This document shows positions 9,335-31,660 of a DNA stretch of 64,000 bases, piece after piece; position 1 is the first letter of the stretch; each line of letters starts with the position of its first letter. The position numbers and the translations under genes were made by a program. Below the pieces are notes generated by a model. That model did not search any database. It was not told where the DNA came from and saw only the letters and a program-made list of their open reading frames with translations. The DNA comes from Alphaproteobacteria bacterium MarineAlpha5_Bin5 (GTDB taxonomy: Bacteria; Pseudomonadota; Alphaproteobacteria; HIMB59; GCA-002718135): assembly GCA_002938205.1 (NCBI GenBank), contig PTKZ01000001.1:124001-188000 (forward strand), written 5' to 3'.

Positions 9335-10246
9335 ATGAATTATTTTTTTAATAAAAACGGACCTTTAATTTCAACTTATTTTGTAATTGCTATAGTTTTT
9401 TGGTTAGTTTTTTTAATTATAATTCCTCAATTGTATATGTTAGATTTATCATTTAGACCTAATCTTCCTCCTTTGTTGAGAGGAGGTCCCGATGACGTGC
9501 ATACTCTTACTCACTACAAATATTTTATTTTTGGCTCTGAAACAAGTGATGATCCTTATAATTATGTTGATATAGGAGTTTTTTTTAACACAATTTCAAC
9601 AGCAATATTTGTCACAATAATTAATCTTTGTTTTTGTTATCCAATTGCTTTCTATATGGCAAAAGTTGCTAGTCCTAATACTTCAAGATTATTAATTGTT
9701 TCTTTAATTATTCCATTTTGGATTAATGAATTATTACGTTCTTTTGCTCTTCGGATTTTATTTGCTGGTGAGGGAGTAATAAATAATATTTTACTAGGAA
9801 CAGGTTTAATCGATTCTGGAATAAATTTTATCGCAATGGATGTAGCACTCTATACAGGCTTAACTTATGCCTATATTCTCCTAATGATTTTTCCACTTTA
9901 TAATGCAATTGAAAGTTTAGATAAAAATCAACTTGAAGCAGCAAAAGATTTAGGCTCGTCAACAATTAGAACTCATTGGCGAATAGTTATTCCTCATGCA
10001 AAAGCAGGAATTGCCTCAGGATGTACAATGGTTTTTATGTTGACTGCTGGAGCATTAGCAACACCAGTAGTATTAAGTAGCCCAAATACATATTGGTTTA
10101 CTCAGCTAATTTACCAATGGTTTAATATGAATGATAACTGGTCTAGAGGATCAGCATATTCAATTTTACTCCTTACCGTTTCAGTAGTGTTTGTACTTTT
10201 AATGATGCGAATTTTTAAAGTAAAAATTGGTGAGATTATAAGATGA
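9335..10246 (+). CDS. ABC transporter permease, PotB-like
   Basis: A 303-residue inner-membrane permease with about six hydrophobic helices. The first is near residues 13-33, followed by a periplasmic loop with LPPLLRGGPDD. The coupling (EAA) loop reads EAAKDLGSSTIRTHWRIVIP near residues 208-227, where it docks on the ATPase. It starts 11 nt after the ATPase gene and overlaps the next permease by 4 nt. Confidence 0.92.
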   Translation: MNYFFNKNGPLISTYFVIAIVFWLVFLIIIPQLYMLDLSFRPNLPPLLRGGPDDVHTLTHYKYFIFGSETSDDPYNYVDIGVFFNTISTAIFVTIINLCFCYPIAFYMAKVASPNTSRLLIVSLIIPFWINELLRSFALRILFAGEGVINNILLGTGLIDSGINFIAMDVALYTGLTYAYILLMIFPLYNAIESLDKNQLEAAKDLGSSTIRTHWRIVIPHAKAGIASGCTMVFMLTAGALATPVVLSSPNTYWFTQLIYQWFNMNDNWSRGSAYSILLLTVSVVFVLLMMRIFKVKIGEIIR

Positions 10247-11481
10247 AATCTCAACATGCATTAAATTTTTTATTAGGAATTTATATTTTTATTTTTTTCT
10301 CTTATTTATTCGGTCCACTAATTATAATGAGTATCACATCTTTTAATTCACTTGAATTTCCTTCCATTACTCCATGGGAATGTTTTAGCTTTAGATGGTT
10401 TAATGAGGGTAAAATTGCTTATGATGGTCAACATTTAGCCGGATTAGCTTCTGATTGGAGACTGCAAGACGGATTGATAAAGAGTTTAATAATAGGGTTA
10501 GGTGTTGTGATCTTATCAGTTCCAATTGGTATGGCAGCTTCTATTGTTTTAACTCAAGTTCACAGTAGATTAAGAACTGTTTTTTATTCTGTATCTATAA
10601 TGCCAGTCTTGTTTCCTGGAGTTATAATAGGTATTTCAACTGTTGTTTTATGGGATCGTATAGCAACTATTGGAGGTGAAGGGTTAATAGCAGATATTGG
10701 AAGAAATGGTATTTTTTTAACTATTTTAGGTCAAACATGTTTTATTTCAACATATTGCTTCTTAATATTTGTAGCAAGATTGCAAAGGTTTGATCAAACT
10801 CAGGAAGAAGCCGCTCTTGATTTAGGAGCAACACAAACTCAAGTATTTTTTAAAATTTTAATTCCCTATTTAATGCCAGCTATTGCTTCTTCTGCAGTTA
10901 TTGCATTTTTAGCCTCTTTTGAAAATTATAATACTACAGTTTTTAGTATATTATCTGATCAAACTTTAACAACCGTTATCGCATCAAAAGTTAGATTAGG
11001 AATTAGTCCTGCAATAAGCGCTCTTGCATTAGTTATTATTTTATTAACTCTTTTTGTAGCAATTATTTATGAAATTTTAAGAAGGCGTGAGGACAGAAAG
11101 AAAAAAGAAAGACAAGATCAATTAATATATGAAGAAACTAAAGATAGTCGTCTTAAAAAAGAAGCAAAAAAATCTTTTAAACTTCCAAAATCAATTTATG
11201 TATTTTTGTTTATATTTATTGTGGGAATATTTGGCTTTAACCAACTTATTAAAAATGGTCTTTATGGGAAAGAATGTGTAGCAGCAGCTGAAGAAGCAAA
11301 AAAATCAAATTTTAGCGATCAACTTAAATTATTACAGCAAAACGCTGAATCAGTTGATGAAAAAGCCTTAGAAGGTGGAGAGCTAGGAGGAAACAAAGAT
11401 TATGGAGATATTTTTGGAGACACAAATCTATTTAAAGATTTTGGAGGATTTGATACTAAGGAAGATAATAAAGAAGAATAG
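10243..11481 (+). CDS. ABC transporter permease, PotC-like, with unusual C-terminal extension
   Basis: A 412-residue permease whose first 280 residues form a normal PotC-type domain with an EAA loop (EEAALDLGATQTQVFFKILI). Family members are usually 260-290 residues. Here about 130 extra residues follow: a highly charged segment, an additional predicted membrane helix at about 317-336, and a roughly 75-residue acidic, Gly/Asp-rich tail ending DTKEDNKEE. The added helix would put the tail on the opposite side of the membrane from the charged linker. The extension's function is unknown. The open reading frame is continuous, so this is not an obvious frameshift product. Confidence 0.9.
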   Translation: MKSQHALNFLLGIYIFIFFSYLFGPLIIMSITSFNSLEFPSITPWECFSFRWFNEGKIAYDGQHLAGLASDWRLQDGLIKSLIIGLGVVILSVPIGMAASIVLTQVHSRLRTVFYSVSIMPVLFPGVIIGISTVVLWDRIATIGGEGLIADIGRNGIFLTILGQTCFISTYCFLIFVARLQRFDQTQEEAALDLGATQTQVFFKILIPYLMPAIASSAVIAFLASFENYNTTVFSILSDQTLTTVIASKVRLGISPAISALALVIILLTLFVAIIYEILRRREDRKKKERQDQLIYEETKDSRLKKEAKKSFKLPKSIYVFLFIFIVGIFGFNQLIKNGLYGKECVAAAEEAKKSNFSDQLKLLQQNAESVDEKALEGGELGGNKDYGDIFGDTNLFKDFGGFDTKEDNKEE

Positions 11482-12582: not shown

Positions 12583-13080
12583 ATGAAAATCAGCCAAAAA
12601 ATTATTAGTAATTTGAAATCAGGTGGAGCAGATTTTTTCTTAAGTGTCCCATGTAAGCTTTTAGCAAATATGATTATAATATTAGAGAAAGATAAAGATA
12701 TTTATTATTCAGCAATACCAAGAGAAGAAGAAGGTATGGGTATATGTGCTGGAGCTTATTTAGGTAATAAACTCCCTTGTATCATGATGCAAAATACTGG
12801 TATTGGTAATTCAGTTAACGCAATAGTTTCTCTTCTTCAATTATATCAAATGCCTGTTGTTTTTTTAATAAGTTACAGAGGCACTCCTGGTGAACCTGTT
12901 GGAGCACAAGGAGGAATGGCAAGTGTAACTGAAGACATTCTTAATACACTAAGAATACCAATGCTTCATTGTAATACCGAAGAAGATCTAGACAAGATTT
13001 CTACTTTTGCCAATCACGCTAAAGTAATTGAAAGTCCAGTAGCTATTTTGTGTAATTTTAATTTAATGAAAGATGATTAA
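12583..13080 (+). CDS. comD: Sulfopyruvate decarboxylase, alpha subunit (ComD-like)
   Basis: A 165-residue protein matching the PYR-domain half of the split ThDP enzyme sulfopyruvate decarboxylase (sulfopyruvate to sulfoacetaldehyde + CO2). The cofactor-activating glutamate lies in IPREEEGMGICAGA (E48-E50), and QNTGIGNSVNAI and YRGTPGEPVGAQG are family segments. The beta subunit follows after 2 nt. Phosphonopyruvate decarboxylase is the closest alternative, but that enzyme is normally a single chain of about 375-400 residues. The downstream kinase and dehydrogenase favour the sulfonate reading. Confidence 0.8.
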   Translation: MKISQKIISNLKSGGADFFLSVPCKLLANMIIILEKDKDIYYSAIPREEEGMGICAGAYLGNKLPCIMMQNTGIGNSVNAIVSLLQLYQMPVVFLISYRGTPGEPVGAQGGMASVTEDILNTLRIPMLHCNTEEDLDKISTFANHAKVIESPVAILCNFNLMKDD

Positions 13081-13082
13081 AG

Positions 13083-13652
13083 ATGAATAGATTTGAATTA
13101 CTTAACCTTTTACAAAATACTATCCAAGATGAGCTTGTTATTTGTAATATTGGTCTTCCGTCTCAAGAGTTATATAAAATTAATGATAGGCCTAATTATT
13201 TTTATATGTTGGGAAGTATGGGTTTAGCTTCATCAATAGGTTTAGGACTTTCCTTAGCAGTAGATAAAAATGTTATAAGTATTGATGGTGATGGTTCAGT
13301 TTTAATGAACATGAATACACTTGCAACTATTGGTAATAGAGCACCCTCAAACTATACTCTTTTAATAGTAGATAATGGCTCATATGGATCTACAGGAGAT
13401 CAAAAAACATTTACAAACGAACACACATCATTAAAAAATGTTGCTATTGGAGCTGGTTGTAATAATGTAATTGAATGCTCAGGTGAAGAAACAAATGAAA
13501 ATTTACGAAAAGCTATAGCTGATAAAAATAATTCGTACGTTATTATATCAAAAATAAAGTCAGGAAATGTACCAATAAAGCCTTTACCTCTTAATGCTGT
13601 TACAATAAGAGATCGATTTAGAAAAGAAATAGGTTTAGTTAATTACCTTTAA
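13083..13652 (+). CDS. comE: Sulfopyruvate decarboxylase, beta subunit (ComE-like)
   Basis: A 189-residue protein matching the PP-domain half of the ThDP enzyme. The diphosphate/magnesium motif begins GDGS at residues 69-72 and ends at N98 (VDNGSYGSTGDQ). YMLGSMGLASSIGLGLSLA near 41-59 is the usual segment ahead of it. Together with the preceding ComD-like subunit it should form an active decarboxylase producing sulfoacetaldehyde. ComDE occurs in coenzyme M synthesis in archaea and in breakdown of sulfolactate, cysteate and dihydroxypropanesulfonate in bacteria. No coenzyme M genes are seen here, so breakdown is the better reading. Confidence 0.82.
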   Translation: MNRFELLNLLQNTIQDELVICNIGLPSQELYKINDRPNYFYMLGSMGLASSIGLGLSLAVDKNVISIDGDGSVLMNMNTLATIGNRAPSNYTLLIVDNGSYGSTGDQKTFTNEHTSLKNVAIGAGCNNVIECSGEETNENLRKAIADKNNSYVIISKIKSGNVPIKPLPLNAVTIRDRFRKEIGLVNYL

Positions 13653-13669: not shown

Positions 13670-14575
13670 ATGATTTACTCAGTTGGTTCAATTTTTCTTG
13701 ATCATATTATTAAAATTAAATCTTTTCCTAAAACACCAGTTAAAGTTTTTGCTCAAGGAATTGAAAAAAGGCTTGGTGGATCAGCTGCAGTAGCTAGTTT
13801 TACTATAAAAAAACTTGGAACAGATGCATCATTTATTGGAAGGTTGGGGGATGATGATATTTCAAAATATTTAATAGCTGAATTGAGTAAATTTAACATA
13901 AAACACAATAATCTTATTACTGTTAAAGGAGCACAATCATCGCAAAGTTATGTTTACGAAGACAAGCAAGGTGAAAGATTTCTCGCTGCATTTAGTGAAA
14001 AAAAATTATTAAATAATAAAAAAATACCAAAAATCTCATTCAAAAAAAATACAACTTTTATAAGTGATCTAAGATGGATTAAAGCAACTCTTTATGTTGC
14101 TAAACATTGTAATAAAAATAATTTGAAGCATGTTGTTGATTTGGATAATTATGAATTAAACTCTAGAGTAAAAAAAATTATTGATCTTTCCTCGTATCCT
14201 ATCTTTTCAGAACCAGGAGCTTTTGAATTTACAAAAACCAAATCAATTATTGGTTCATTAAAAAAAATGTACTCAATTAAAAATAAATTTTATGCAATAA
14301 CCGCTGGTAAAAAAGGTGTTTATTGGATTGAAAATGGTTTTATTTTTAATTGCAAACCTCCAAAAATAAAAGTTGTTGAAACAAATTGTGCAGGAGATGT
14401 CTTCCACGGCGCTTTTGCGGCCTTTATTCATCAAAAGCATTCAATTATTGACTCAATGAAATTAGCTACTGCCACTGCTTCATTAAAATGCACAAAGAAT
14501 GGAGGTATTTATTCTATACCTTCTTATTCATCAGTTAGGAAGTTTGTAAAAAAAATTCAATTAAGGAAATTATGA
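13670..14575 (+). CDS. PfkB-family kinase, YihV (6-deoxy-6-sulfofructose kinase)-like
   Basis: A 301-residue PfkB sugar kinase. The catalytic Asp is D243 in CAGDVFHGAFA. Several stretches match E. coli YihV as I remember it: GAQSSQS near 88, GERF near 101, SDLRW at 132-136, FSEPG at 179-183, DVFHGA and SLKCTKNGG near 271. K25 and R135 align with residues I recall as sulfonate contacts in YihV (K27, R138), while the recalled Asn is Ala here. Expected reaction: ATP-dependent phosphorylation of a keto-sugar, possibly sulfofructose. It sits 17 nt after comE and 4 nt before a sulfolactate-dehydrogenase-like gene. The substrate is inferred; no alignment could be run. Confidence 0.75.
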   Translation: MIYSVGSIFLDHIIKIKSFPKTPVKVFAQGIEKRLGGSAAVASFTIKKLGTDASFIGRLGDDDISKYLIAELSKFNIKHNNLITVKGAQSSQSYVYEDKQGERFLAAFSEKKLLNNKKIPKISFKKNTTFISDLRWIKATLYVAKHCNKNNLKHVVDLDNYELNSRVKKIIDLSSYPIFSEPGAFEFTKTKSIIGSLKKMYSIKNKFYAITAGKKGVYWIENGFIFNCKPPKIKVVETNCAGDVFHGAFAAFIHQKHSIIDSMKLATATASLKCTKNGGIYSIPSYSSVRKFVKKIQLRKL

Positions 14576-14579
14576 TCAT

Positions 14580-15503
14580 ATGAAAATACTGGTCACAGAA
14601 TTTATGGAAGCTAAAAGTATAGAAACGTTAAAAAAACATTTTGATGTTACAGTTGATCAAAATCTATCTATAAATTCTAATGAGTTAAAAAAAATAATTA
14701 GTAAATTTGATATCTTAATTGTTAGGAATAAAACTCAGGTTGATAAAGAAATACTAGAAAATGCATCTAATTTAAAATTTATTGGACGTTTAGGAGTTGG
14801 TCTAGATAATGTTGATACCGAATATTGTAAAAATAATAATATTTATGTGCAACCAGCAACAGGTATGAATGCAGACTCTGTTGCAGAATATGTAATTAAT
14901 GCAACACTATGTTTATTAAAAAAAATACCATTAATACATCAAGAAACTTCAATAGGAAATTGGCCCAGAACTTCAATTTTTTCAAGAGAACTAAAAGGTA
15001 AGAAAATTGGCCTATTGGGTTTTGGCTTAATTGCAAAAAAAGTAACTATTATGGCAAAGATATTTAATGCTCATATATTTGCATATGATCCATTTGTTGA
15101 TCAAAGTATTGCTAATGAATTTGATATTAAACTAGTAGATATAAATGAAATATTTGAAAAGGCTGAGGTTATTTCAATACATTTACCTCTTACTGAAACT
15201 ACTAAAAATTTATTGAATTATGAAGCTTTTAAGAAAATGCTAAAACAACCTATCATTATTAATTCTTCAAGAGGGTCTATAATTAATGAAGAAGACTTAT
15301 TAAGAGCTTATGATGAAAAACTAATATCTGGCTTTGCTTTAGATGTTTATAATAATGAGCCAGTACAAAAAAATTTTTTAGAGAGTATAAAGAATAATAC
15401 TAATTGCATGCTTACACCTCACATTGCTGGTGTGACTATAGAATCGAATATCAGAGTAAGTGAGTTTATTGCAAATTCAGTAAAACAGTTTTTTAAATTA
15501 TAA
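14580..15503 (+). CDS. D-isomer 2-hydroxyacid dehydrogenase (sulfolactate dehydrogenase/SlcC-like candidate)
   Basis: A 307-residue NAD(P)-dependent 2-hydroxyacid dehydrogenase of the SerA-type fold. Catalytic residues R231 (NSSRGSIIN), E260 (NNEPV) and H281 (TPHIAG) are present. The nucleotide loop is GFGLIA (147-152), with Ala in place of the last Gly. The family includes phosphoglycerate dehydrogenase, glyoxylate/hydroxypyruvate reductases and the sulfolactate dehydrogenase SlcC. Next to ComDE, oxidation of sulfolactate to sulfopyruvate is the simplest fit, feeding the decarboxylase directly. It is the last gene of the 12583-15503 operon and overlaps the convergent oxidoreductase gene by 6 nt. 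Confidence 0.82.
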   Translation: MKILVTEFMEAKSIETLKKHFDVTVDQNLSINSNELKKIISKFDILIVRNKTQVDKEILENASNLKFIGRLGVGLDNVDTEYCKNNNIYVQPATGMNADSVAEYVINATLCLLKKIPLIHQETSIGNWPRTSIFSRELKGKKIGLLGFGLIAKKVTIMAKIFNAHIFAYDPFVDQSIANEFDIKLVDINEIFEKAEVISIHLPLTETTKNLLNYEAFKKMLKQPIIINSSRGSIINEEDLLRAYDEKLISGFALDVYNNEPVQKNFLESIKNNTNCMLTPHIAGVTIESNIRVSEFIANSVKQFFKL

Positions 15504-16586
15504 TTTAAACTCTTCCATAAATACAACTCGTTTTTCTTTAATAGAGTTTTCAGCAGCTTCACCTATTGCAACTGACATTAACCCATCTCTTAAAGAAACT
15601 TCTGGTTCTCTATTATTTTGAATAGAATTTATAAAAGCTAAATGCTCAAAATAAGTTGATCCATGATGATGTCCTGCCGCTAAAATTTTTTTATCAACTT
15701 TGACATCATTTACTTTAAGAACGTTATCTTTTCTTAAGCCTATTATTACTTCTGAGGAATCTTTTCCTGAAGCACTTGATGGTACAAATGTTTCTATCTT
15801 GCCTATATCTCCAATAGCCACAATCTCTTCTTGGTATTCAGAATTTTCTGCAAACATACATAAATCAAGCATTCCTCGAACACCATTTTCAAAATCCACA
15901 ATAACAAATGCATTATCTATAATATCCGGAGTTTTACCATCATATTTTTCTTTCAGGTGATTAACGTCTTGATTTCCACTGGCATAAACTTTTTTTGGTT
16001 CACTTTGAATAACAAGTCTCATTAGATCAAAGAAATGACAACACTTTTCAACTAAAGTCCCTCCAGTATTAATTGCAAATCTATTCCAGTCGTCTACTTT
16101 ATGTAAAAAAGGAAATCGATGTTCACGAATAGAAAGCATTTTAATTTCACCAATTACATTATTGTGTACTTCACTAATTAACTGTTTTACTGGAGGCATG
16201 TATCTGTATTCCATTCCAGTCCAAATTATCTTGGAATAATTTTTTGAAAGTAACTCAAATTTTTTACAATCATCAGTAGTTGTGCATAAAGGTTTTTCTA
16301 TTAACAAATGTTTATTTGTTTTTAAAATTTGTTCTAATATATTGATGTGTGTAAAATTTGGTGTAGCAATAATATAAGCATCTGCAATATTTTGACTTAT
16401 TAACTCATTTAAATTATTATAAAACTTTGCAGACTCCTTAACTAAAGATTTTGCTTGGCTTCTTGAACTTTCGTTGGTGTCACAAACTGCTACTACCTCT
16501 GCATTTTCAATAATATTAATATTTTGAATATGTTCCTGTCCCATTACGCCAGCTCCAATTATTCCATATTTTATAGTCTCTCTCAT
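15498..16586 (-). CDS. Gfo/Idh/MocA-family oxidoreductase
   Basis: A 362-residue NAD(P)-dependent sugar oxidoreductase. The Rossmann motif is GIIGAGVMGQEH at the N-terminus, EKPLCTTTDDC lies near residue 95, and a catalytic-type His sits in VEKCCHFFDLMRLV near 190. Its start overlaps the stop of the FucI-like isomerase gene by 4 nt, so they form one minus-strand operon. It could oxidise a sugar or sugar derivative handled by the sulfosugar block, for example at C1 or C3, or act on an aldehyde product. Substrates of this family cannot be predicted from motifs alone. Confidence 0.88.
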   Translation of the reverse strand: MRETIKYGIIGAGVMGQEHIQNINIIENAEVVAVCDTNESSRSQAKSLVKESAKFYNNLNELISQNIADAYIIATPNFTHINILEQILKTNKHLLIEKPLCTTTDDCKKFELLSKNYSKIIWTGMEYRYMPPVKQLISEVHNNVIGEIKMLSIREHRFPFLHKVDDWNRFAINTGGTLVEKCCHFFDLMRLVIQSEPKKVYASGNQDVNHLKEKYDGKTPDIIDNAFVIVDFENGVRGMLDLCMFAENSEYQEEIVAIGDIGKIETFVPSSASGKDSSEVIIGLRKDNVLKVNDVKVDKKILAAGHHHGSTYFEHLAFINSIQNNREPEVSLRDGLMSVAIGEAAENSIKEKRVVFMEEFKL

Positions 16587-17962
16587 ATTGTATATGTTGG
16601 TATCTTTAATTTTTTTCCTAAATTTTTAATATCTTCTATTATATCACCATAAGTAAAGGCTAGATGATGCTCTAAACCACTTAAAATAATATTTTTAATT
16701 TTTTTATATGTATTTTTTCCCAAACTTATTACACCTGATGTTCCAGAAAAAGAGTTTTTTCTCCTAAGCACCGTTCCTTTCATTAAAAAAAATTTTAATT
16801 TATTTTCTGATTTTGAAACACGAAATATTGTAATTTCTCCAGATTTAAATGCAAAATTATGAAGTAAAGGTTTTCTTCTATTTGAGTGAACTGTTGCACT
16901 AGAAGTATTTTTTTCAGCCATACTTATAGGGGCAAGACCGCAGTGCCAAAAAACCGTGGTATTATCTTTCTCATCTACATCGACAATATCTACTAGCAAG
17001 GAAGGTTTATTATTTAATTGATTTAATATGTTACAACTTAAACTACCAAGAACATCACTTTCACACGCACAACTTATTTTCTTTTCATTCATCATAGCCA
17101 TTGGTCCACATGAAGCACATCCATATTCTGTAAACATTTCAGGCCAACAACGTACAGCAAAAGCATCAATATTTTCTTTTTGTTGAATTTGTTCAAGTCC
17201 ATGGAACAAAGATATACTTTTATTTACTTCTTTTTGATTTAACTGATTTAAGTTTTGTAGATTATTATTAATACTTCTCTTAGTGATATTAATAGTCTTT
17301 GTTTCAACTTTACTTGAAATATCAAATAATTTTGGCAAATTTAGCTTTGTTATTTTTGCATCAAATATTTTTTTCAATTCTTTAGTATTGAAATCACAGG
17401 TATCAAATCCCTCAGGTCTTTCACCAATTAGACCTAAATTTGGTTTTTTAAATACAATTAAATTTTTATTAAATTTTTTTGAAATTAGAGTACTTTTCAA
17501 ATAATTTTTTTTTGTAAAATGATTTTTATTTTTTACAAATTTTAATATTTCCTTAGAAAAAGACTTTTCATCATTTGAGTAAATTACAAAATTGGAATAA
17601 AATTTATTTTTAATTAAAGAATGCAATCCTAAATTAACACCACAAAGCGAATTTAGTCTTAATCGTCCCCCAGTTCTCTTTTCCTTAAATGATATAAATA
17701 AAATTGGTTTTTTAAATTTTTTAACAAACGAAGAAATAAATTTTGCATCTGTAAAAGTAGATTGTATAACTATAAATTTTGTACATTTACTATTTTCAAA
17801 AAATTTTAGTGCTTCTTTTCCAATTTTGTCATTAACAATTAAATCATCAAAAAATTTAATGCCTCTATTTAATTTATTTATAATATTTATTGTTTTCTTT
17901 AATTTTTTCTTAGCATACTCAATATCAAAAGTTTCTCTTGCTAAGCCTAAGCACCCAATCAT
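16583..17962 (-). CDS. L-fucose/L-arabinose isomerase-like ketol-isomerase
   Basis: A 459-residue protein of the FucI/AraA-like sugar isomerase group, which converts an aldose to a ketose with a divalent metal. Likely metal ligands are E275 (VRCWPEMF), E301 (CACESDVLG) and H432/H433 (LEHHLAF). A Cys-rich patch, YGCASCGPMAMM, lies between the first two. Some sulfoglycolysis clusters use isomerases annotated as FucI/AraA-like for sulfoquinovose; the YihV-like kinase 2 kb away makes that role attractive. Residues 110-260 are Lys/Asn-rich and poorly conserved in appearance. Its ATG overlaps the stop of a short upstream ORF (TAATG), indicating coupling. Confidence 0.75.
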   Translation of the reverse strand: MIGCLGLARETFDIEYAKKKLKKTINIINKLNRGIKFFDDLIVNDKIGKEALKFFENSKCTKFIVIQSTFTDAKFISSFVKKFKKPILFISFKEKRTGGRLRLNSLCGVNLGLHSLIKNKFYSNFVIYSNDEKSFSKEILKFVKNKNHFTKKNYLKSTLISKKFNKNLIVFKKPNLGLIGERPEGFDTCDFNTKELKKIFDAKITKLNLPKLFDISSKVETKTINITKRSINNNLQNLNQLNQKEVNKSISLFHGLEQIQQKENIDAFAVRCWPEMFTEYGCASCGPMAMMNEKKISCACESDVLGSLSCNILNQLNNKPSLLVDIVDVDEKDNTTVFWHCGLAPISMAEKNTSSATVHSNRRKPLLHNFAFKSGEITIFRVSKSENKLKFFLMKGTVLRRKNSFSGTSGVISLGKNTYKKIKNIILSGLEHHLAFTYGDIIEDIKNLGKKLKIPTYTI

Positions 17963-18165
17963 TAAAAACCTTTATACGTATTATTAAATATTATAGATTT
18001 TTTTTGAATTAAATTTTTTTTTATAATATTAAAAATAGAAGGTATTTGATTAATAGCTAACATCTCTAAGTGATTGTTTTTGTTGAATAGTTTAATTAAA
18101 TGTAAGTATTTGCTTTTTCTATAAGATTCCATAATAATTATAAAATTTATTAATTTTTTATGCAT
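17962..18165 (-). pseudogene. 67-codon ORF resembling the N-terminus of a LacD/YihT-type class I aldolase
   Basis: A short ORF immediately upstream of, and overlapping, the FucI-like gene. Its middle part, KNNHLEMLAINQIPSIF (residues about 29-45), resembles the N-terminal strand of LacD/YihT-type aldolases, where the pattern is roughly MLAxDQRxx. The usual Asp and Arg are Asn and Ile here. Real aldolases of this family are about 290-330 residues, so at best this is a remnant or an N-terminal leader. No continuation is visible, since the isomerase gene begins at its stop. It may also be a chance ORF or a translational-coupling leader. The assignment rests on one short motif. Confidence 0.35.
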
Positions 18166-18224
18166 TTTTAATCCTTGTATAACGTTTTAGGATATGTTTT
18201 AAAGTTAAAAAAATTGGAGGAAAA

Positions 18225-19499
18225 ATGATTAAATATTTTTTTAAAGCCTTTTCAATTGCTTTAATTTCAATCTCATTGACATTAATTTCTGCAGTTTCTT
18301 TCGCTGCTACTGATGTAAGAATCATGTGGTATGGAGATGGAGATAAGGAAAATGTGCCAATGCAAGCACAAATAGATGCATTTAATGCAGCTAATCCAGA
18401 TATTAACGTAATATTAGATATTGTACCTTATGATGCAATTATGAATACTTTACCTATTCAATTAGCAGCTGGAGAAGGTCCTGATATTGCTCGTGTAACA
18501 GATCTTGGTGGTTTAAATAAATATTATGCTGATATTACCGCTCATGTTGCTGATCCTAGTTACTACGAAAAAAGTTTTGGGCCATTTTTAAATTGGTATC
18601 GTAAATCTGGTGATACAACTTCAATACATGGTTTCCATTCTACAATGACAGTAACGGGTCCATATGTGAATAAAACATTATTCGAACAAGCTGGCGTTGA
18701 TCTTTTAGGTCCTGGTGCTACTTGGGAAGAATGGGCAGCAGTAGCTAATGAAGTTGCTGGTAAAGTAGGGGCTCCTATTCCAATGGCTTGGGATAGATCC
18801 GGTCACCGTGTTTCTGGCCCAGCAATTTCAATGGGCGCTAAATATTTTGATTCTAATGGAGATCCAAAGCTAGTTGATGATGGTTTAAAATCAATGACTC
18901 AAATGCTTTATGACTGGCATCAAGATGGCACTATGTCAAAAGATCTTTGGGGTTCAGTTTCTGGAACAAAATATCATGCTCCAAATGATTGGTGGAATGC
19001 TGCAGAAGTAGTATTTATGATGAGTGGTTCTTGGCAAATTGGAAGATTTGCTAATGAAGTAGGCGATGATTTTGACTGGTGGGCAGTTCCGGCTCCTTGT
19101 GGCCCAGCTGCTTGTACAGGAATGCCAGGTGGGAACGCATTACTAGCATTTACTGCTAATGATGCTGTAGGTAAAGTAATGGATTATTTATCTAGTAAAG
19201 AAAAACTAAGTGAATTTATAGGTCAAGTTCTTGCTATTCCTGGCCACTTAGACTTGCAAGTTGATTATCAAACTGATGATCCTAATGCGAAACATGCACT
19301 AAACACTTTTGCAGGTGCTGTTCCGACTATTGATCAAGTTGCTTTTGATCTTCAAGCACACGTTGATAACCGTATTATGTTTAATGCGATTATATCAAGA
19401 TTAGGGCAAGCAATTGTTGGAGAAATGACAATGGAAGAAGCTTGGACTCGTATGGATGAAGATGTTGAAAAACAACTTAAAGAGAAATACGGCGGATAA
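18225..19499 (+). CDS. Sugar ABC transporter substrate-binding protein (MalE/UgpB family)
   Basis: A 424-residue extracellular solute-binding protein of the carbohydrate type. A Sec signal peptide covers about residues 1-27, ending SAVSFA. The mature protein begins VRIMWYGDGDKENVPMQ and contains AAGEGPDIARVTDLGGL near 85, typical of disaccharide/alpha-glucoside binders, plus an NALLAF segment near 302. A GGAGG ribosome site lies just before the ATG. It is transcribed divergently from the isomerase/oxidoreductase operon across a 59-bp gap. A hairpin follows, then two permeases, a dehydrogenase and the ATPase. Possible cargo: a uronate-containing or sulfo-glycoside; this is inferred from neighbours only. 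Confidence 0.92.
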   Translation: MIKYFFKAFSIALISISLTLISAVSFAATDVRIMWYGDGDKENVPMQAQIDAFNAANPDINVILDIVPYDAIMNTLPIQLAAGEGPDIARVTDLGGLNKYYADITAHVADPSYYEKSFGPFLNWYRKSGDTTSIHGFHSTMTVTGPYVNKTLFEQAGVDLLGPGATWEEWAAVANEVAGKVGAPIPMAWDRSGHRVSGPAISMGAKYFDSNGDPKLVDDGLKSMTQMLYDWHQDGTMSKDLWGSVSGTKYHAPNDWWNAAEVVFMMSGSWQIGRFANEVGDDFDWWAVPAPCGPAACTGMPGGNALLAFTANDAVGKVMDYLSSKEKLSEFIGQVLAIPGHLDLQVDYQTDDPNAKHALNTFAGAVPTIDQVAFDLQAHVDNRIMFNAIISRLGQAIVGEMTMEEAWTRMDEDVEKQLKEKYGG

Positions 19500-19523
19500 T
19501 TATATCCAAATTTATAAAAACAT

Positions 19524-19552
19524 AAAGCTGCTCAAAATGAGCAGCTTTTTCT
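19524..19552 (+). terminator. Intrinsic terminator/attenuator after the sugar-binding-protein gene
   Basis: An 11-bp perfect stem, AAAGCTGCTCA (19524-19534) with TGAGCAGCTTT (19538-19548), has a 3-nt AAA loop and ends in a T run. It lies 25 nt after the binding-protein stop and 12 nt before the first permease gene. Confidence 0.87.
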
Positions 19553-19564
19553 TGAAATACTTTA

Positions 19565-20596
19565 ATGAAAAATACTAGAAATCAAATCAAATCTTTTTTC
19601 ATTAGAATTTTAAATATCCCTTTTGCTTTTTTCATGCATGCAATTGATCTAATAATGTGGCCAATTCAAAAAATTATAGGAGTAAGAAATATGCCCTATA
19701 TTTTTTTGCTTCCAAACTTAATTTTTTTTGGATTATTTGTCATCATTCCACTTGGGGCAAATATTTTCTTTTCACTTTCATCGGGAGATGAACTATTATT
19801 TGCTGAAAGAGAGCTTCCTACTACAAAACAATATGATGAGTTGCTTACCTGTGATAACTATTTAAATCCAAATACATGTACAGAAGATTTTTTTTGGAGA
19901 GGTGTTTACAACACTATATTTTTTGTTTTTTTTCAAGTTGGTTTAATGATTTTCTTTTCTGTTTTAACAGCAGTAATCTTAAATAAAAATATTATTGGTA
20001 GGGGGTTTTTTAGATCAGTATTCTTTTTTCCTGTTTTATTATCTCCTGTTGTTGTTGGTTTAATATGGCAATGGATACTTCTTAAAAATGGAGCCTTTAA
20101 TGCAGTTATAGAATCTTATGGAGGTAATAAAGTATCATTTTTAACTGATCCTTCTTGGGCTATGGCATCAGTAATTTTTGTTTCAATTTGGGCGCATATG
20201 GGTTTCTATACTTTAATTGTTCTTGCAGGCCTTCAGGCAATACCTCCAAATTTATACGAGGCAGCTGAAATGGATGGAACTAGTAGAGAGAGAATTTTTT
20301 TTAGAATTACCTTGCCTCTGCTTATGCCTAATTTGCTCGTAGTGTTTATTCTCGCCTCAATTAAAGGTGTACAAACATTTGATGAAATTTACGTATTAAC
20401 CGGTGGTGGTCCTGGAACATCTACATCGCTAATTGTTCAGTATATATTTACTACAGGATTTGCTTCATCTGGATCAGTTCAAAATTTTGGTCTTGCAGCG
20501 GCAGCATCAATGATACTTGGGGTAGTGCTTTTAATTTTAACTCTCATGCAACTGTATTTTAGTAGAAATAAAGAAAGTAAACATCAAGAAATTTAA
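19565..20596 (+). CDS. Sugar ABC transporter permease, MalF/UgpA-like
   Basis: A 343-residue inner-membrane permease. About 40 residues precede the first helix (MPYIFLLPNLIFFGLFVIIP). A periplasmic loop with two Cys (LLTCDNYLNPNTCTEDF) follows. The coupling loop is YEAAEMDGTSRERIFFRITL near residue 229, and the TGGGPGTST motif near 278 is typical of carbohydrate permeases. It starts 12 nt after the attenuator hairpin and is followed after 1 nt by its partner permease. Confidence 0.93.
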   Translation: MKNTRNQIKSFFIRILNIPFAFFMHAIDLIMWPIQKIIGVRNMPYIFLLPNLIFFGLFVIIPLGANIFFSLSSGDELLFAERELPTTKQYDELLTCDNYLNPNTCTEDFFWRGVYNTIFFVFFQVGLMIFFSVLTAVILNKNIIGRGFFRSVFFFPVLLSPVVVGLIWQWILLKNGAFNAVIESYGGNKVSFLTDPSWAMASVIFVSIWAHMGFYTLIVLAGLQAIPPNLYEAAEMDGTSRERIFFRITLPLLMPNLLVVFILASIKGVQTFDEIYVLTGGGPGTSTSLIVQYIFTTGFASSGSVQNFGLAAAASMILGVVLLILTLMQLYFSRNKESKHQEI

Positions 20597-20597
20597 T

Positions 20598-21662
20598 ATG
20601 TCAGATACAAAATCAACTTTAATAGAAATTGCTACTAAAAAAAGATATAAAAATAAATATCATTGGACTGATTATTTCTCCTATTTTTATTTATTTTTAG
20701 GTGTGTTATTAATGTTTGGTCCTGTTGTGTGGTTAGGATTATCTTCACTTAAGACACAGGCTGGCATTCAAGAATATCCTCCAACAATACTTCCACTTTC
20801 ACAAATTCAAGTTCAAGTTGATGGATATGATAAACCTTTACCAATTTTTAATGTTACACAGGAAGATGGATCAGTAAAACAGCTAGCTCAAATAAAGAGA
20901 ATTGGAATTAAAGCCAAAATGGTTGATCCTCTAAATCCAGAAGAAACAATCAAGGTTCCTATAGATAAAAGAGAAAAAATTAGAGAATTTAAAATTCAAT
21001 GGGAGAATTATGTTGATCCTTTAAGAAAATATAATTTTCTTCTTTATTTTAAAAATTCAACTTTCATCACTGTTATTGCAACAATTATAACTTTAATAAT
21101 TAATTCAATGGCAGCCTATGCTCTTTCTATTTATGAATTTAGAGGTAAAAACTTTGCTCTTGTTTTTGTTATTGGAACTTTGCTTATACCTTTAACAATA
21201 ATATTGGTACCAGTGTTTTATGTTATTGCAAATTTTGGAATGATAAACTCATTATGGGGTGTAATATTACCTGGGGCCGCAACACCAACAGGAGTTTTTT
21301 TATTACGTCAGTATATGCTTACATTACCTAGAGAACTTATAGAGGCAGCAAGAATGGATCATGCTAGTGAATGGGCAATCTATTGGCGAGTTGTTTTACC
21401 ATTATCTATTCCAGCGATTGCTGTTTTAGCAATTTTCTCAATAATGTGGCGATGGAATGATTTCTTATGGCCTTTGATTGTTTTATCAAAAAGTGAAGTT
21501 TACACACTGCAGATTGGTTTGAATGCATTTCACGGTGAACTTACCAGTCAATGGAATTATGTTTTATCTATGACTATGGTAACGCTTTTACCAATTGCAA
21601 TAATTTTTGCTTATTTACAAAAATTTATAACAACGGGAATAGCAAGTACAGGTATGAAATAA
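20598..21662 (+). CDS. Sugar ABC transporter permease, MalG/UgpE-like, with periplasmic insertion
   Basis: A 354-residue permease partner. Helix 1 is near residues 27-48. An insertion of about 80 mostly hydrophilic residues (about 65-145) then sits in the first periplasmic loop, which in most MalG proteins is short. Alpha-glucoside permeases of the AglG/ThuG sort have a similar insert as I recall. The coupling loop is IEAARMDHASEWAIYWRVVL near residue 249. Its stop overlaps the start of the next gene by 1 nt. Confidence 0.92.
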   Translation: MSDTKSTLIEIATKKRYKNKYHWTDYFSYFYLFLGVLLMFGPVVWLGLSSLKTQAGIQEYPPTILPLSQIQVQVDGYDKPLPIFNVTQEDGSVKQLAQIKRIGIKAKMVDPLNPEETIKVPIDKREKIREFKIQWENYVDPLRKYNFLLYFKNSTFITVIATIITLIINSMAAYALSIYEFRGKNFALVFVIGTLLIPLTIILVPVFYVIANFGMINSLWGVILPGAATPTGVFLLRQYMLTLPRELIEAARMDHASEWAIYWRVVLPLSIPAIAVLAIFSIMWRWNDFLWPLIVLSKSEVYTLQIGLNAFHGELTSQWNYVLSMTMVTLLPIAIIFAYLQKFITTGIASTGMK

Positions 21663-22675
21663 TGTCAATAAAACCACTGATTCTTTTTGATCCATTTCCA
21701 AGAAATGAAGAAATGGTTTTTACTGAAGATGTAAAATCTGAATTAAATAAAATTTCAAGATTAGTTTATCACTTTGGGAGTAGAGCACCAGAGGCCCTAA
21801 TTGAAAAGAATTTAGAGGATATTGAAATTTTAGTTGGACAAACTGCCATGCCAAAAGAACGTTTAGATAAATCTAAGAAAATCAAGGCTATTATTAACGT
21901 AAAAGCTAATTGGGAACCAAATATTGATTATCATGAAGCTCACAAGAGAGGAATATATGTTTTGTCAGCTGCTCCCGCAATGGCCCCAGCAGTAGCTGAA
22001 GCTTGCCTTGGTTATGCAATTTCTTTGTCTAGAGATGTATTAGGAGTTTATAAAAAATTTTTAAAATCAGAAGAGCAATACGGAATTAAACAAAATAAAT
22101 ATGCTTACACATTATTTAATTCCAAAGTAGGTTTTATTGGTTTTGGAAATTTAGCAAAAAGTTTACTTACCCTTTTGGAGCCATTTCATTGCAATGTTTC
22201 AGTTTATGATCCATGGCTATCTGAAGACTATTTGTTAAAACAAAATGTACAACCTACTTCTCTGGAAAGTGTGTTATCTAATAATGAATTTATTTTTATT
22301 TTAGCTGGAGTTACAACTGAAAATGAAGGATTTATAAATAGAGATAAACTTAATCTTATTAAAAAAAATAGTTCAGTCATTTTAGTTAGTAGAGCAGAAG
22401 TGGTTGACTTTGATGCTTTTATAGAATTAGCAGAAAATGAACATTTTAGAGCAGCTATTGATGTTTTTCCAGTTGAACCTGTTCCAAAGAATTCTAATTT
22501 TAGAAAAAAATCAAAAATTTTATTTACATCTCATGTTGCAGGGGCTCTACATTATTCATATAAAAATATTAGAGAAATGATGATGAGTGATATCAAAAAT
22601 ATTTTAAAAGGAATGCCTCCATTAAATTTACAAAGAGCTGATCCGGATAAAGCTATAATGAGAAGGGATAGATAA
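21662..22675 (+). CDS. D-isomer 2-hydroxyacid dehydrogenase-family protein
   Basis: A 337-residue NAD-binding hydroxyacid dehydrogenase. I chose the ATG at 21662, which overlaps the permease stop (TAATG) and begins MSIKPLILFDPFPRNEE; a longer frame reaching back to 21551 runs inside the permease gene. The NAD loop is GFIGFGNLAKS near 157. The active-site Arg, Glu and His are in VSRAEVVD, PVEPVPK and TSHVAG. It lies inside the transporter operon, between permease and ATPase, so its substrate is probably the imported compound or a product of it, such as a hexonate or keto-acid. Precise function unknown. Confidence 0.85.
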   Translation: MSIKPLILFDPFPRNEEMVFTEDVKSELNKISRLVYHFGSRAPEALIEKNLEDIEILVGQTAMPKERLDKSKKIKAIINVKANWEPNIDYHEAHKRGIYVLSAAPAMAPAVAEACLGYAISLSRDVLGVYKKFLKSEEQYGIKQNKYAYTLFNSKVGFIGFGNLAKSLLTLLEPFHCNVSVYDPWLSEDYLLKQNVQPTSLESVLSNNEFIFILAGVTTENEGFINRDKLNLIKKNSSVILVSRAEVVDFDAFIELAENEHFRAAIDVFPVEPVPKNSNFRKKSKILFTSHVAGALHYSYKNIREMMMSDIKNILKGMPPLNLQRADPDKAIMRRDR

Positions 22676-23752
22676 ATGACTGAAATAATTCTTAAGGATA
22701 TTTTTAAAAGTTATGATCAAACAGAAGTTATTCACGGTGTAAATCTAAAGGTAGAAAGTGGTAAATTTTTAGTTCTTGTAGGTCCCTCAGGTTGTGGAAA
22801 ATCAACATTACTAAGAATTATTGCAGGATTGGAGAGAATTACATCTGGTGAAATATTAATTGATGGAAATGAAGTGAGCAATATTCCTGCTTCTGAAAGA
22901 GGATTAGCAATGGTTTTTCAATCATATGCTTTATACCCTCATATGTCTGTTTTTAAAAATATGGCATTTGCTCTAGAAAATTTAAAAATGGATAAAAAAA
23001 TAATTGAAGAAAAAGTAAATAGTGCTGCAAAACTTTTACAGATAGAAGATTATCTTCAAAGAAAACCTAAGGCACTCTCAGGTGGTCAACGTCAAAGAGT
23101 TGCAATCGGTAGAGCGATAGTTAGAGATCCAAAAGCTTTTTTATTTGATGAACCTTTATCTAATCTTGATGCTGAACTTCGTGTTACAATGAGAAAAGAA
23201 CTTTCATCTTTGCATGAAAAAATTGGCGGTACTATGATTTATGTTACTCATGATCAAGTAGAAGCTATGACACTTGCCGATCAAATTGTTGTATTAAATA
23301 ATGGTTATGTAGCGCAAGCAGGAGCACCACTTAATTTGTATAATAATCCAAGCGATATTTTTGTAGCCGGTTTTATAGGTTCACCAAAAATGAATTTTAT
23401 AAAGATTACTGCTGATGAAAATGCTGGATCATTTAATTTATGTTCGGACTCATTTAATTTAAAATCTGGTCATAAAAATTTAAAGCATAACTCTATTTAC
23501 ACACTTGGTATAAGACCCGAACATATTGAAGTTACCAATAAGGAAGATTCTGATTTAATTGTAAATGTTGATTTTTCAGAGCAACTTGGAAGTGAGACAT
23601 ATTTTTATTGTAATAGCAAAGATATCAATCAACTCATTGTTCATCATACAGGTCAGTATAAAATTAACAAAGGAGATGAACTATATTTACGATTTAAAAG
23701 AGATTCATTACACCTTTTTAGTGAAGATGGAATGTCAGTAACTAATAATTAA
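22676..23752 (+). CDS. Sugar ABC transporter ATP-binding protein (MalK/UgpC-like)
   Basis: A 358-residue carbohydrate-type ATPase. Walker A is GPSGCGKST near residues 36-44, the signature LSGGQRQRVAIGRAI near 133, and Walker B FLFDEPLSNLDAELR near 156. A TOBE domain occupies the C-terminal third (GIRPEHIEV near 280). The start codon abuts the previous stop (TAAATG). It energises the permeases encoded at 19565 and 20598. Confidence 0.94.
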   Translation: MTEIILKDIFKSYDQTEVIHGVNLKVESGKFLVLVGPSGCGKSTLLRIIAGLERITSGEILIDGNEVSNIPASERGLAMVFQSYALYPHMSVFKNMAFALENLKMDKKIIEEKVNSAAKLLQIEDYLQRKPKALSGGQRQRVAIGRAIVRDPKAFLFDEPLSNLDAELRVTMRKELSSLHEKIGGTMIYVTHDQVEAMTLADQIVVLNNGYVAQAGAPLNLYNNPSDIFVAGFIGSPKMNFIKITADENAGSFNLCSDSFNLKSGHKNLKHNSIYTLGIRPEHIEVTNKEDSDLIVNVDFSEQLGSETYFYCNSKDINQLIVHHTGQYKINKGDELYLRFKRDSLHLFSEDGMSVTNN

Positions 23753-23757
23753 AATTT

Positions 23758-24786
23758 ATGAATTCAAAAAAAATAGGTGTGGCAGTAATTGGAACTGGTA
23801 TGGCAGCTAAACCACATGCTTTAGCATTAAATGATATCAAAGAAAAAATAGATGTAATTGGAGTTTTTTCTCGCAATAAAAATAATAGAGAAAAATTTGC
23901 AAAAAATTATAATTTTGAAACTTTTCCAGATATTGAATCAATTCAGAATAATACTGAAGTTGATATGGCAATACTTATAACACCGCCAAACCAAAGATTA
24001 GAACTTGTAAATAAATTAAGTAGTGCAGGAAAACATATTTTAATGGAAAAACCTATTGAAAGAACATCAGAAAATGCAGAAAAAATAGTTTCTATTTGTG
24101 AAAAAAATAATGTTAATTTAGGAATAGTTTTCCAACATAGATACAGAAAATCATCTATTAAATTAAAATCATTGATTGAAGAAAATAAGTTTGGTCCAAT
24201 TTATTCAGCTCAAATTAATATCCCTTGGTGGAGAGAGCAGTCTTATTATAATGAACAAGGAAGAGGGACATATGAAAGAGATGGAGGAGGCGTCCTTATT
24301 AGCCAAGCAATACACACACTAGATCTGATTTTAAATCTTTTGGGTGATGTTAAAGAAGTCCAAGTAATGACAGAAACTACTAAGTTCCATACAATGGAGT
24401 CAGAAAACTTTGTAACAGGTGGTTTAAAATTTAAGACAGGTGTTATTGCTTCACTGTATGCAACTACATCTGCATTTCCAGGTGCTCCTGAGTCGATAGT
24501 TCTGCACTGTGAGAAGGTAACAGTAAAATTAGAGGCAGGAATTCTAAATATAAATTGGAGAAATGGTAAAGTTGAACAATTTGGTGAAGAGTCTGGAACT
24601 GGAGGAAGTGCTGACCCAATGGCTTTTCCTTTTGATTGGCATAAAGATTTGATTATTGATTTTGCAAATTCTATTTTATCTCAAAAAACATTTAGAGTTT
24701 CAGGAAAAGAGGCGTTAAAAGTTCATTATTTGATTGATGCAATCATGCAATCATCAAAACAAAGCAAACTTATATCTATGGAATAA
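23758..24786 (+). CDS. Gfo/Idh/MocA-family oxidoreductase
   Basis: A 342-residue NAD(P)-dependent oxidoreductase with Rossmann motif VIGTGMAAKPHALAL at the start, MEKPIERT near 95 and the conserved GGGVLISQAIHTLDLIL near 178, whose His is the expected catalytic residue. It follows the transporter ATPase by 5 nt in the same operon and precedes a second, more divergent family member. The target is likely a sugar or glycoside brought in by the transporter. Confidence 0.9.
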   Translation: MNSKKIGVAVIGTGMAAKPHALALNDIKEKIDVIGVFSRNKNNREKFAKNYNFETFPDIESIQNNTEVDMAILITPPNQRLELVNKLSSAGKHILMEKPIERTSENAEKIVSICEKNNVNLGIVFQHRYRKSSIKLKSLIEENKFGPIYSAQINIPWWREQSYYNEQGRGTYERDGGGVLISQAIHTLDLILNLLGDVKEVQVMTETTKFHTMESENFVTGGLKFKTGVIASLYATTSAFPGAPESIVLHCEKVTVKLEAGILNINWRNGKVEQFGEESGTGGSADPMAFPFDWHKDLIIDFANSILSQKTFRVSGKEALKVHYLIDAIMQSSKQSKLISME

Positions 24787-27015: not shown

Positions 27016-27783
27016 CTATTTAGATAGTAGATTTAAATATTTGTAGCTAATTTTTATTGCTTCAAAAGGATCTTTATTGCATTCATCTTGTTCTACAATG
27101 AACCATTTACAACCTGAATTTTCAGCTTCAAAAATTATTCTGGGAATATTTAAATTTCCTTGCCCTAATTCAGCATAAAAACCTTCATCATTTTCATTAA
27201 TTACAAAATCCTTTAAGTGGATTAAAGGAAGTCGATTATTAAGATGAATACACCAATCGATCGGATTATGTCCTCCTTTTTGAATCCAAAAAATATCAGG
27301 TTCACCTTGAACATTGTGGTGATTTGTTTTTCTATAAATTCTTTCTAAAATTGTTTCATTTTCAATTTTTTTAAACTCAATTGCATGATTATGATAACAA
27401 AGCACTTTACCTGATTCTTTCATTATTGAGCCTGCTTTATCAATTTTTTTTATAAATAAATCAATTTCCTTAATACTATTTAAATTGACATTTAATGGAT
27501 ATGGTAGAGCGGTATATATGCAGTCAAAAATATTCAATTTTTCAATTATTTTATTTGTATTATTAATAATTAATTCATTAGGTTCGTGTGTAGCACAAAT
27601 TAATAATTCTAAATCATCACATATGTTCTTAACAATTCTTGGATTAATTGGACCTATACTACTAACCTGAATAGCAGAATAACCTATATTTTTTACTTTT
27701 TGCAATGACTTAACTAAGTCCTTTTCTGTCTGACAGAAATTTCTAATAGTGTAAAGTGTTAAAGCGATTTGTTTCTTATTCAT
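27016..27783 (-). CDS. Sugar phosphate isomerase/epimerase (xylose-isomerase-like TIM barrel)
   Basis: A 255-residue TIM-barrel protein of the AP-endonuclease-2/xylose isomerase-like group (IolE/IolI relatives). The start IALTLYTIRNF is characteristic. Metal-type ligands appear in CYHNHAIEF near 130, EPDIFWIQKGGHNP near 162, HLKDF near 189 and IVEQDE near 230. Its start overlaps the stop of a Gfo/Idh gene by 4 nt. Such Gfo/Idh plus TIM-barrel pairs are known to cleave or epimerise glycosides through 3-keto intermediates, but isomerisation of a free sugar acid is also possible. Confidence 0.82.
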   Translation of the reverse strand: MNKKQIALTLYTIRNFCQTEKDLVKSLQKVKNIGYSAIQVSSIGPINPRIVKNICDDLELLICATHEPNELIINNTNKIIEKLNIFDCIYTALPYPLNVNLNSIKEIDLFIKKIDKAGSIMKESGKVLCYHNHAIEFKKIENETILERIYRKTNHHNVQGEPDIFWIQKGGHNPIDWCIHLNNRLPLIHLKDFVINENDEGFYAELGQGNLNIPRIIFEAENSGCKWFIVEQDECNKDPFEAIKISYKYLNLLSK

Positions 27784-28883: not shown

Positions 28884-28955
28884 TATAAATAAATATGTTT
28901 GTTCTTTTGAAGTTATAAATTTAATAATAAATTAAAATATCATAGAGTAGAATAA

Positions 28956-30404: not shown

Positions 30405-30405
30405 G

Positions 30406-31599: not shown

Positions 31600-31660
31600 A
31601 TTTAAAGTATATTATTATAAGTGTTTTAAAAAAAAACAACTTAAATTATAATAATACAAA

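What the first reader, a model, noticed from the sequence alone, without database searches (positions are those of the whole stretch)
13670..14575. YihV-like kinase retaining Lys and Arg but not Asn of the recalled sulfonate pocket
Long-range similarity to YihV from memory is strong (GAQSSQS, SDLRW, FSEPG, DVFHGA, LKCTKNGG in the same order). K25 and R135 align with the Lys and Arg I recall as contacting the sulfonate, whereas the recalled Asn aligns with A107. The substrate could be sulfofructose bound in a slightly different way, or a related acidic keto-sugar (for example a uronate-derived ketose). The recalled YihV contacts should be verified before use.
Basis: partly seen in the sequence, partly recalled or inferred. 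Interest (0 to 1): 0.6.

Follow-up and report, generated by a model that had tools for sequence, protein, structure and literature searches.

The report
Sulfofructose kinase in ocean sulfosugar cluster
This gene very probably encodes the kinase of a previously unrecognised sulfosugar (sulfoquinovose) degradation cluster in abundant, uncultured ocean bacteria, with a sulfonate pocket that has drifted from the E. coli version and, in this species, no dedicated aldolase gene for the next step.

Summary
ORF 13670-14575 is a PfkB kinase whose best solved relative is E. coli sulfofructose kinase YihV (31% identity, E=1.8e-40). K25, A107 and R135 align with K27, N109 and R138. The residues do not settle the substrate: Lys and Arg are also kept in kinases without sulfo-gene neighbours, and Thioglobus-type relatives in the same cluster have Val and His/Asn at the last two positions. 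The neighbourhood does settle it. The adjacent gene 15498-16586(-) is a GH188 NAD-dependent sulfoquinovosidase (E=3.4e-110 to PDB 8QC2) with all eight sulfoquinovose-contacting residues. Next to it is a distant SftI-type isomerase, and the kinase sits between sulfopyruvate decarboxylase (ComDE) and a 2-hydroxyacid dehydrogenase. The block recurs across the genus and, with the missing aldolase and a sulfolactaldehyde-dehydrogenase-like gene, in an unrelated alphaproteobacterium. Best reading: sulfofructose kinase of a hybrid sulfo-EMP pathway that also carries genes for degrading its C3 sulfonate product, in what is probably an AEGEAN-169 bacterium. The uronate alternative is disfavoured. Oddities: the LacD/YihT-type aldolase is missing here and in the 50% sister clade, and published survey thresholds would probably miss this kinase.

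The parts
13670..14575 (+). YihV-like sulfofructose kinase (PfkB family, 301 aa); K25, A107, R135; catalytic Asp243 in CAGDVFHG
   Evidence: PDB 7ag6 E=1.8e-40; PF00294 125 bits; alignments; tree
15498..16586 (-). GH188 NAD+-dependent sulfoquinovosidase (SqgA-like); K98, Y127, R157, L161, K163, E180, H184, H307 match the eight SQ-contacting residues of ArSqgA
   Evidence: 8qc2 E=3.4e-110; residues checked against the paper
16583..17962 (-). sulfoquinovose isomerase-like protein (SftI family, L-fucose-isomerase fold)
   Evidence: NF048012 E=1.1e-88, 298 bits, below the equivalog cut-off of 700; PF02952
11484..12533 (+). aldose 1-epimerase (candidate SQ mutarotase)
   Evidence: PF01263 223 bits; TIGR02636 below cut-off
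12583..13080 (+). sulfopyruvate decarboxylase alpha subunit (ComD)
   Evidence: TIGR03845 156.5 bits, cut-off 147.95
13083..13652 (+). sulfopyruvate decarboxylase beta subunit (ComE)
   Evidence: TIGR03846 221.0 bits, cut-off 221.5
14580..15503 (+). D-2-hydroxyacid dehydrogenase (PGDH-type), candidate sulfolactate dehydrogenase SlcC
   Evidence: TIGR01327 259.6 bits, below cut-off 454; also in the L108 block and in Thioglobus loci; substrate inferred
17963..18224 (.). empty interval where the closest relatives carry a class I LacD/YihT-type aldolase gene
   Evidence: L048, L049, L052 neighbourhoods; aldolase search of the order
18225..23752 (+). carbohydrate ABC transporter (binding protein, two permeases, ATPase) with an embedded 2-hydroxyacid dehydrogenase gene; possible importer, substrate not assigned
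   Evidence: ORFs; no match to a sulfosugar-binding structure; replaced by other transporters in L051 and L052

Best explanation
The gene encodes 6-deoxy-6-sulfofructose kinase, which phosphorylates O1 of sulfofructose with ATP, in a sulfoquinovose (SQ) degradation cluster. Proposed route: SQ glycosides are cleaved inside the cell by the GH188 sulfoquinovosidase (15498-16586). SQ is equilibrated by the mutarotase (11484) and isomerised to sulfofructose by the SftI-type isomerase (16583). The kinase (13670) makes sulfofructose-1-phosphate, which is split to DHAP and sulfolactaldehyde. In most close relatives a LacD/YihT-type aldolase does this; in this species it is inferred to be another aldolase, perhaps the class I fructose-bisphosphate aldolase. 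Sulfolactaldehyde is oxidised to sulfolactate by a GabD-type dehydrogenase elsewhere in the genome, then to sulfopyruvate by the 14580 dehydrogenase. ComDE (12583/13083) decarboxylates it to sulfoacetaldehyde, and Xsc (46 kb away) cleaves that to acetyl phosphate and sulfite. Shown by sequence: homology, motifs, conserved clustering and presence of Xsc. Inferred: every substrate and the order of steps. The kinase pocket has drifted: Lys is fixed, Asn is replaced by Ala, and Arg is kept in this genus but lost in Thioglobus-type relatives.
For: YihV is the best solved relative, E=1.8e-40; in the tree the window clade is sister to yih-cluster YihV, support 90/94. Neighbouring GH188 has E=3.4e-110 to SQ-bound 8QC2, and all eight SQ contacts listed in PMC10755693 are conserved. 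SftI hit E=1.1e-88, ComD over its cut-off, ComE 0.5 bit below. Kinase present in 66 of 162 genomes of the order, all one genus, with the same gene block in the eight neighbourhoods read. Unrelated alphaproteobacterium L108 has kinase, LacD-type aldolase, SftI, GH188, mutarotase, SSADH/SLADH-type dehydrogenase, 2-hydroxyacid dehydrogenase, ComD and ComE together. Four Thioglobus-type loci have kinase, GH188, SftI, LacD and the dehydrogenase together. Xsc 953 bits, cut-off 676. Aldehyde dehydrogenase 51% identical to the L108 one at G000:C12.
Against: No dedicated sulfofructose-phosphate aldolase was found in the window genome (92% complete): PF01791 gives only DeoC, and the LacD query gives no match. 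The isomerase scores far below its equivalog cut-off. The 2-hydroxyacid dehydrogenase and mutarotase matches are generic. N109 is replaced, and no model could be made to see how the sulfonate is held. Xsc does not track the kinase within the genus: 54 of 66 with the kinase against 27 of 36 without, p=0.45. No biochemical data.
Confidence: 0.85

Rival explanations
1. The kinase acts on a different 6-sulfo-ketohexose, such as sulfotagatose from sulfofucose or sulforhamnulose, and the cluster degrades a sulfosugar other than SQ.
For: The LacD-type aldolase of relatives is named after tagatose-bisphosphate aldolase and the isomerase has an L-fucose-isomerase domain. A PfkB kinase plus DeoC/LacD-family aldolase was considered for sulfofucose in Paracoccus but was not induced there.
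Against: The GH188 residues contacting the C4 hydroxyl (E180) and the other hydroxyls of the gluco-configured SQ are all conserved, and the only isomerase family matched is SQ isomerase SftI.
Confidence: 0.08
2. The kinase acts on a carboxylated keto-sugar, for example fructuronate or a 2-keto-3-deoxy acid.
For: A hexuronate-type block with mannonate dehydratase, a fructuronate-reductase-like protein, KdgK and KDPG aldolase lies 11-18 kb downstream.
Against: That block has its own KdgK-like kinase at 31661. Known hexuronate pathways do not phosphorylate fructuronate (own knowledge). The sulfo block is kept in L051 and L052, where the flanking transporter differs.
Confidence: 0.03
3. It is a neutral fructokinase or ribokinase-like enzyme that has drifted from YihV and lost sulfonate recognition.
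For: N109 is replaced by Ala here and by Val in Thioglobus types, where Arg is also lost. The window clade has a long stem in the tree, 1.95 changes per site.
Against: The drifted kinases stay within the same sulfosugar gene block across Alphaproteobacteria and Gammaproteobacteria, with the neighbouring GH188 sulfonate triad (R, L, K) conserved. K25 is invariant in alignment A2.
Confidence: 0.04

Closest known systems
E. coli YihV, 6-deoxy-6-sulfofructose kinase (PDB 7AG6)
   Same: Same family, 31% identity over the full length, same motif order, Lys and Arg of the recalled sulfonate pocket, catalytic Asp
   Different: N109 replaced by Ala; GAGD changed to CAGD; sits with GH188 and SftI-type proteins and ComDE instead of YihQ, YihS, YihT, YihU
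Sulfo-EMP gene clusters (E. coli; Arthrobacter sp. AK01 with GH188 SqgA)
   Same: Glycosidase, isomerase and kinase in one block; GH188 gateway enzyme as in Arthrobacter
   Different: SftI/SqvD-type isomerase instead of YihS; downstream sulfolactate to sulfoacetaldehyde genes included; no aldolase in this species
GH188 'Tyr variant' clusters of Actinobacteria IMCC26103 and Clavibacter sp. (PMC11465081)
   Same: GH188, fucose-isomerase-type protein, SF kinase, PGDH-type dehydrogenase and ABC transporter; the Clavibacter cluster also lacks the SFP aldolase
   Different: Those have Tyr at L170 and sulfolactate sulfo-lyase; here Leu is kept and ComDE takes the place of the lyase
Hybrid sulfo-EMP/EMP2 cluster of Vibrio mediterranei (PMC13372026)
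   Same: YihV-type kinase combined with a non-YihT aldolase
   Different: Uses YihS and a class II aldolase and releases DHPS; here SftI type, ComDE and probable further degradation in the same cell

Membership tests
YihV sulfofructose kinase | Closest by sequence to YihV rather than ribokinase or other PfkB kinases | tested here: met
   7ag6 E=1.8e-40, next 2rbc 1.8e-27, ribokinase 3e-14; sister to yih-cluster kinases, 90/94
YihV sulfofructose kinase | Sulfonate-pocket residues K27, N109, R138 | tested here: inconclusive
   K and R kept, N replaced by Ala. Two of 34 yih-cluster kinases have Ser there, and Thioglobus types have Val plus His/Asn. The contact list itself is from memory
YihV sulfofructose kinase | Catalytic Asp of the [GA]AGD motif | tested here: met
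   A241 G242 D243 invariant in the alignments
YihV sulfofructose kinase | Encoded with sulfosugar catabolic genes | tested here: met
   GH188, SftI-like and ComDE genes in the same block; conserved in relatives
YihV sulfofructose kinase | Phosphorylates sulfofructose | not testable with these tools
   Needs an enzyme assay
GH188 NAD-dependent sulfoquinovosidase (gene 15498) | Homology to SqgA and conserved SQ-contacting residues | tested here: met
   E=3.4e-110; K98, Y127, R157, L161, K163, E180, H184, H307 match the residues in PMC10755693
SftI sulfoquinovose isomerase (gene 16583) | NF048012 equivalog cut-off of 700 bits | tested here: not met
   297.9 bits over nearly the full length, only NCBIfam family matched; treated as SftI-like, not as a member
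Sulfopyruvate decarboxylase ComDE | TIGR03845 and TIGR03846 cut-offs | tested here: inconclusive
   Alpha 156.5 over 147.95; beta 221.0 just under 221.5; L108 homologues pass both
Canonical sulfo-EMP cluster | Dedicated SFP aldolase (YihT or SqiA type) | tested here: not met
   No LacD/YihT-type aldolase in the window genome. The only class II hit sits among IolB, MtnP and MtnA genes; a LacD-type gene is present in seven close relatives
Canonical sulfo-EMP cluster | YihS-type SQ isomerase | tested here: not met
   SftI-type protein instead; no YihS match in the relatives' loci of this type

The most novel reading that the evidence does not exclude
Abundant uncultured ocean bacteria (probably AEGEAN-169, plus Thioglobus-type Gammaproteobacteria) use a hybrid sulfo-EMP pathway that, in the alphaproteobacteria, carries SQ glycosides to acetyl phosphate and sulfite within one cell. 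The sulfofructose kinases rebuilt their sulfonate pocket around a single fixed lysine, and in this species and the 50% sister clade a housekeeping fructose-bisphosphate aldolase replaced the dedicated SFP aldolase.
Probability: 0.4. Interest if true: 0.75.

Novelty: new variant of a known kind. Interest (0 to 1): 0.55.

Why it matters
SQ is among the most abundant organosulfur compounds, and its degradation in the open ocean has mostly been assigned to Roseobacter and other cultured taxa. This cluster would add streamlined surface-ocean lineages. The AEGEAN-169 genome description does not mention sulfo compounds (zero hits for 'sulfo'). A recent marine survey used at least 30% identity and E<=1e-50 to known proteins (PMC13372026). 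The window kinase reaches only E=1.8e-40 to E. coli YihV by phmmer, so such screens would probably miss it. It also makes a defined question testable: how sulfofructose is recognised when the Asn, and in Thioglobus the Arg, are gone, and which aldolase acts next.

Tried and rejected
The YihV structure paper is not held. The ABC transporter was tested as a sulfosugar importer by PDB sequence search: no sulfosugar-binding protein came up. The isomerase has no PDB sequence match. The class II aldolase at G000:C30 was considered as the SFP aldolase and rejected as the first choice: it lies among IolB, MtnP and MtnA genes and is also common in genomes without the kinase. The Gfo/Idh/MocA protein at 15498 was first taken for a sugar dehydrogenase; the PDB search showed it is GH188. 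Xsc co-occurrence as support was rejected because Xsc is common throughout the genus with or without the kinase (p=0.45).

Full report
Observation. The ORF 13670-14575 (+), 301 aa, is real. It is a PfkB-family kinase (PF00294, 125 bits). Among solved structures its best relative is E. coli sulfofructose kinase YihV (7ag6, E=1.8e-40), then an uncharacterised Agrobacterium kinase (2rbc, 1.8e-27) and ribokinase (3e-14). K25, A107 and R135 align with YihV K27, N109 and R138.

What the residues do and do not say. Among 34 kinases encoded with YihS and/or YihT homologues (E. coli YihV included) all keep Lys and Arg, 32 have Asn and two have Ser at position 109. In the window's genus the pattern Lys/Ala/Arg is invariant in every locus read. 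In four Thioglobus-type gammaproteobacterial loci with the same kind of gene block the pattern is Lys/Val/His or Lys/Val/Asn. Eleven alphaproteobacterial homologues with Pro at position 109 also keep Lys and Arg; none of those whose neighbourhoods were examined shows sulfo genes. So Lys and Arg retention is neither sufficient nor, for Arg, necessary for membership in a sulfosugar block. The His/Asn substitution has a parallel: sulfolactaldehyde dehydrogenases are proposed to swap sulfonate-binding Arg residues for His and Asn (PMC10599462).

The neighbourhood. Directly around the kinase are an aldose epimerase (11484), the two sulfopyruvate decarboxylase subunits (TIGR03845 over its cut-off, TIGR03846 0.5 bits under), a PGDH-type 2-hydroxyacid dehydrogenase (14580), a Gfo/Idh/MocA protein (15498, -) and an SftI-like sulfoquinovose isomerase (16583, -; 298 bits, cut-off 700). 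The Gfo/Idh/MocA protein is the strongest single clue. It matches the SQ-bound GH188 NAD-dependent sulfoquinovosidases (8QC2, E=3.4e-110). The SQ contacts reported for ArSqgA are Lys107, Tyr136, Arg166, Leu170 (backbone), Lys172, Glu189, His193 and His321 (PMC10755693). All eight are identical in the window protein: K98, Y127, R157, L161, K163, E180, H184, H307. The Arg-x3-Leu-x-Lys sulfonate triad is kept in the relatives inspected.

Conservation. In the window's order 66 of 162 genomes have the kinase, all in one genus. Eight neighbourhoods read in full have the same seven-gene block, although the flanking transporter differs in some. An unrelated alphaproteobacterium (G183, L108) carries kinase (with Asn at 109), LacD-type aldolase, SftI-like isomerase, GH188, mutarotase, an SSADH/SLADH-type dehydrogenase, the 2-hydroxyacid dehydrogenase, ComD and ComE as one run of genes. 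Four Thioglobus-type loci carry kinase, GH188, SftI-like, LacD-type aldolase and the dehydrogenase, with no ComDE match in the stretch held. In a maximum-likelihood tree the window clade is sister to yih-cluster kinases (90/94) on a long stem.

The missing aldolase. Seven close relatives carry a class I aldolase (PRK12858 subfamily, 323 bits over a cut-off of 184; related to YihT 7ag7, E=3.9e-14) near the kinase; in the three read in full it lies between the isomerase and the transporter. In the window only 262 bp separate these genes. The window genome (92% complete) has no LacD match, only DeoC from PF01791, one class II aldolase set among IolB, MtnP and MtnA genes, and a class I fructose-bisphosphate aldolase that occurs in only three of the order's 162 genomes. 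The 50%-identity clade of the genus also lacks the gene at that site. Two other close relatives (G005, G008) have the kinase near a contig end, so their lack of the gene is not informative. I infer that another aldolase, perhaps FBA, acts on sulfofructose-1-phosphate, which resembles fructose-1,6-bisphosphate. A published GH188 cluster (Clavibacter, PMC11465081) also lacks the aldolase. A gene in the missing 8% of the assembly is not excluded.

Downstream steps. Xsc is encoded 46 kb from the kinase (953 bits, cut-off 676). A GabD-type aldehyde dehydrogenase 51% identical to the one in L108 is at G000:C12. Xsc is common throughout the genus and does not track the kinase (54/66 against 27/36, p=0.45), so it is compatible with the pathway but not independent support.

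Alternatives. A uronate-derived substrate is disfavoured: the uronate-type block 25819-33108 (mannonate dehydratase UxuA over cut-off, a KdgK-like kinase, KDPG aldolase) is separate and has its own kinase. Another sulfo-ketohexose remains possible but is less likely given the conserved GH188 hydroxyl contacts and the SftI match.

Organism. The related records are uncultured marine Alphaproteobacteria single cells. Window GC is 29.07%, matching the mean of the GCA002718135 family reported alongside HIMB59 (29.09%; PMC10734472). This suggests an AEGEAN-169-type bacterium; it is an inference, not a placement.

Novelty. Hybrid sulfo-EMP clusters and GH188 clusters with a fucose-isomerase-type protein are known (PMC13372026, PMC11465081). 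In the literature searches made I found no report of the block in these pelagic lineages or joined to ComDE; the library holds only open-licence papers. I file it as a new variant of a known kind.

Noticed in passing
window 25819-33108: Hexuronate-type degradation block: weak glucuronate-isomerase-like protein, mannitol-dehydrogenase/fructuronate-reductase-like protein, mannonate dehydratase UxuA, KdgK-like kinase and KDPG aldolase, separate from the sulfosugar block.
   Followed up: partly
L116 to L119, around 10001-10897: Candidatus Thioglobus and Pseudothioglobus type genomes carry the same kinase, GH188, SftI-like and LacD block, with Val at position 107 and His or Asn at position 135.
   Followed up: partly
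G000:C54:17025-18035 (L201:7022-8038, -): A class I fructose-bisphosphate aldolase, found in only three of the order's 162 genomes, next to a sugar ABC transporter; candidate stand-in for the missing SFP aldolase.
   Followed up: partly
L044:72-5722: IolB-like protein, a class II aldolase, MtnP- and MtnA-like proteins and a 674-aa aldolase/dehydrogenase-like protein in a row, resembling a methylthioadenosine or 5-deoxyribose salvage shunt.
   Followed up: no
window 13670-14575, codons 238-243: The GAGD anion-hole motif reads CAGD in the window's genus, while Thioglobus-type relatives keep GAGD.
   Followed up: no
window 21659-22675 and 23758-24786: A second D-2-hydroxyacid dehydrogenase and another Gfo/Idh/MocA protein accompany the ABC transporter genes; their substrate is unknown.
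   Followed up: no
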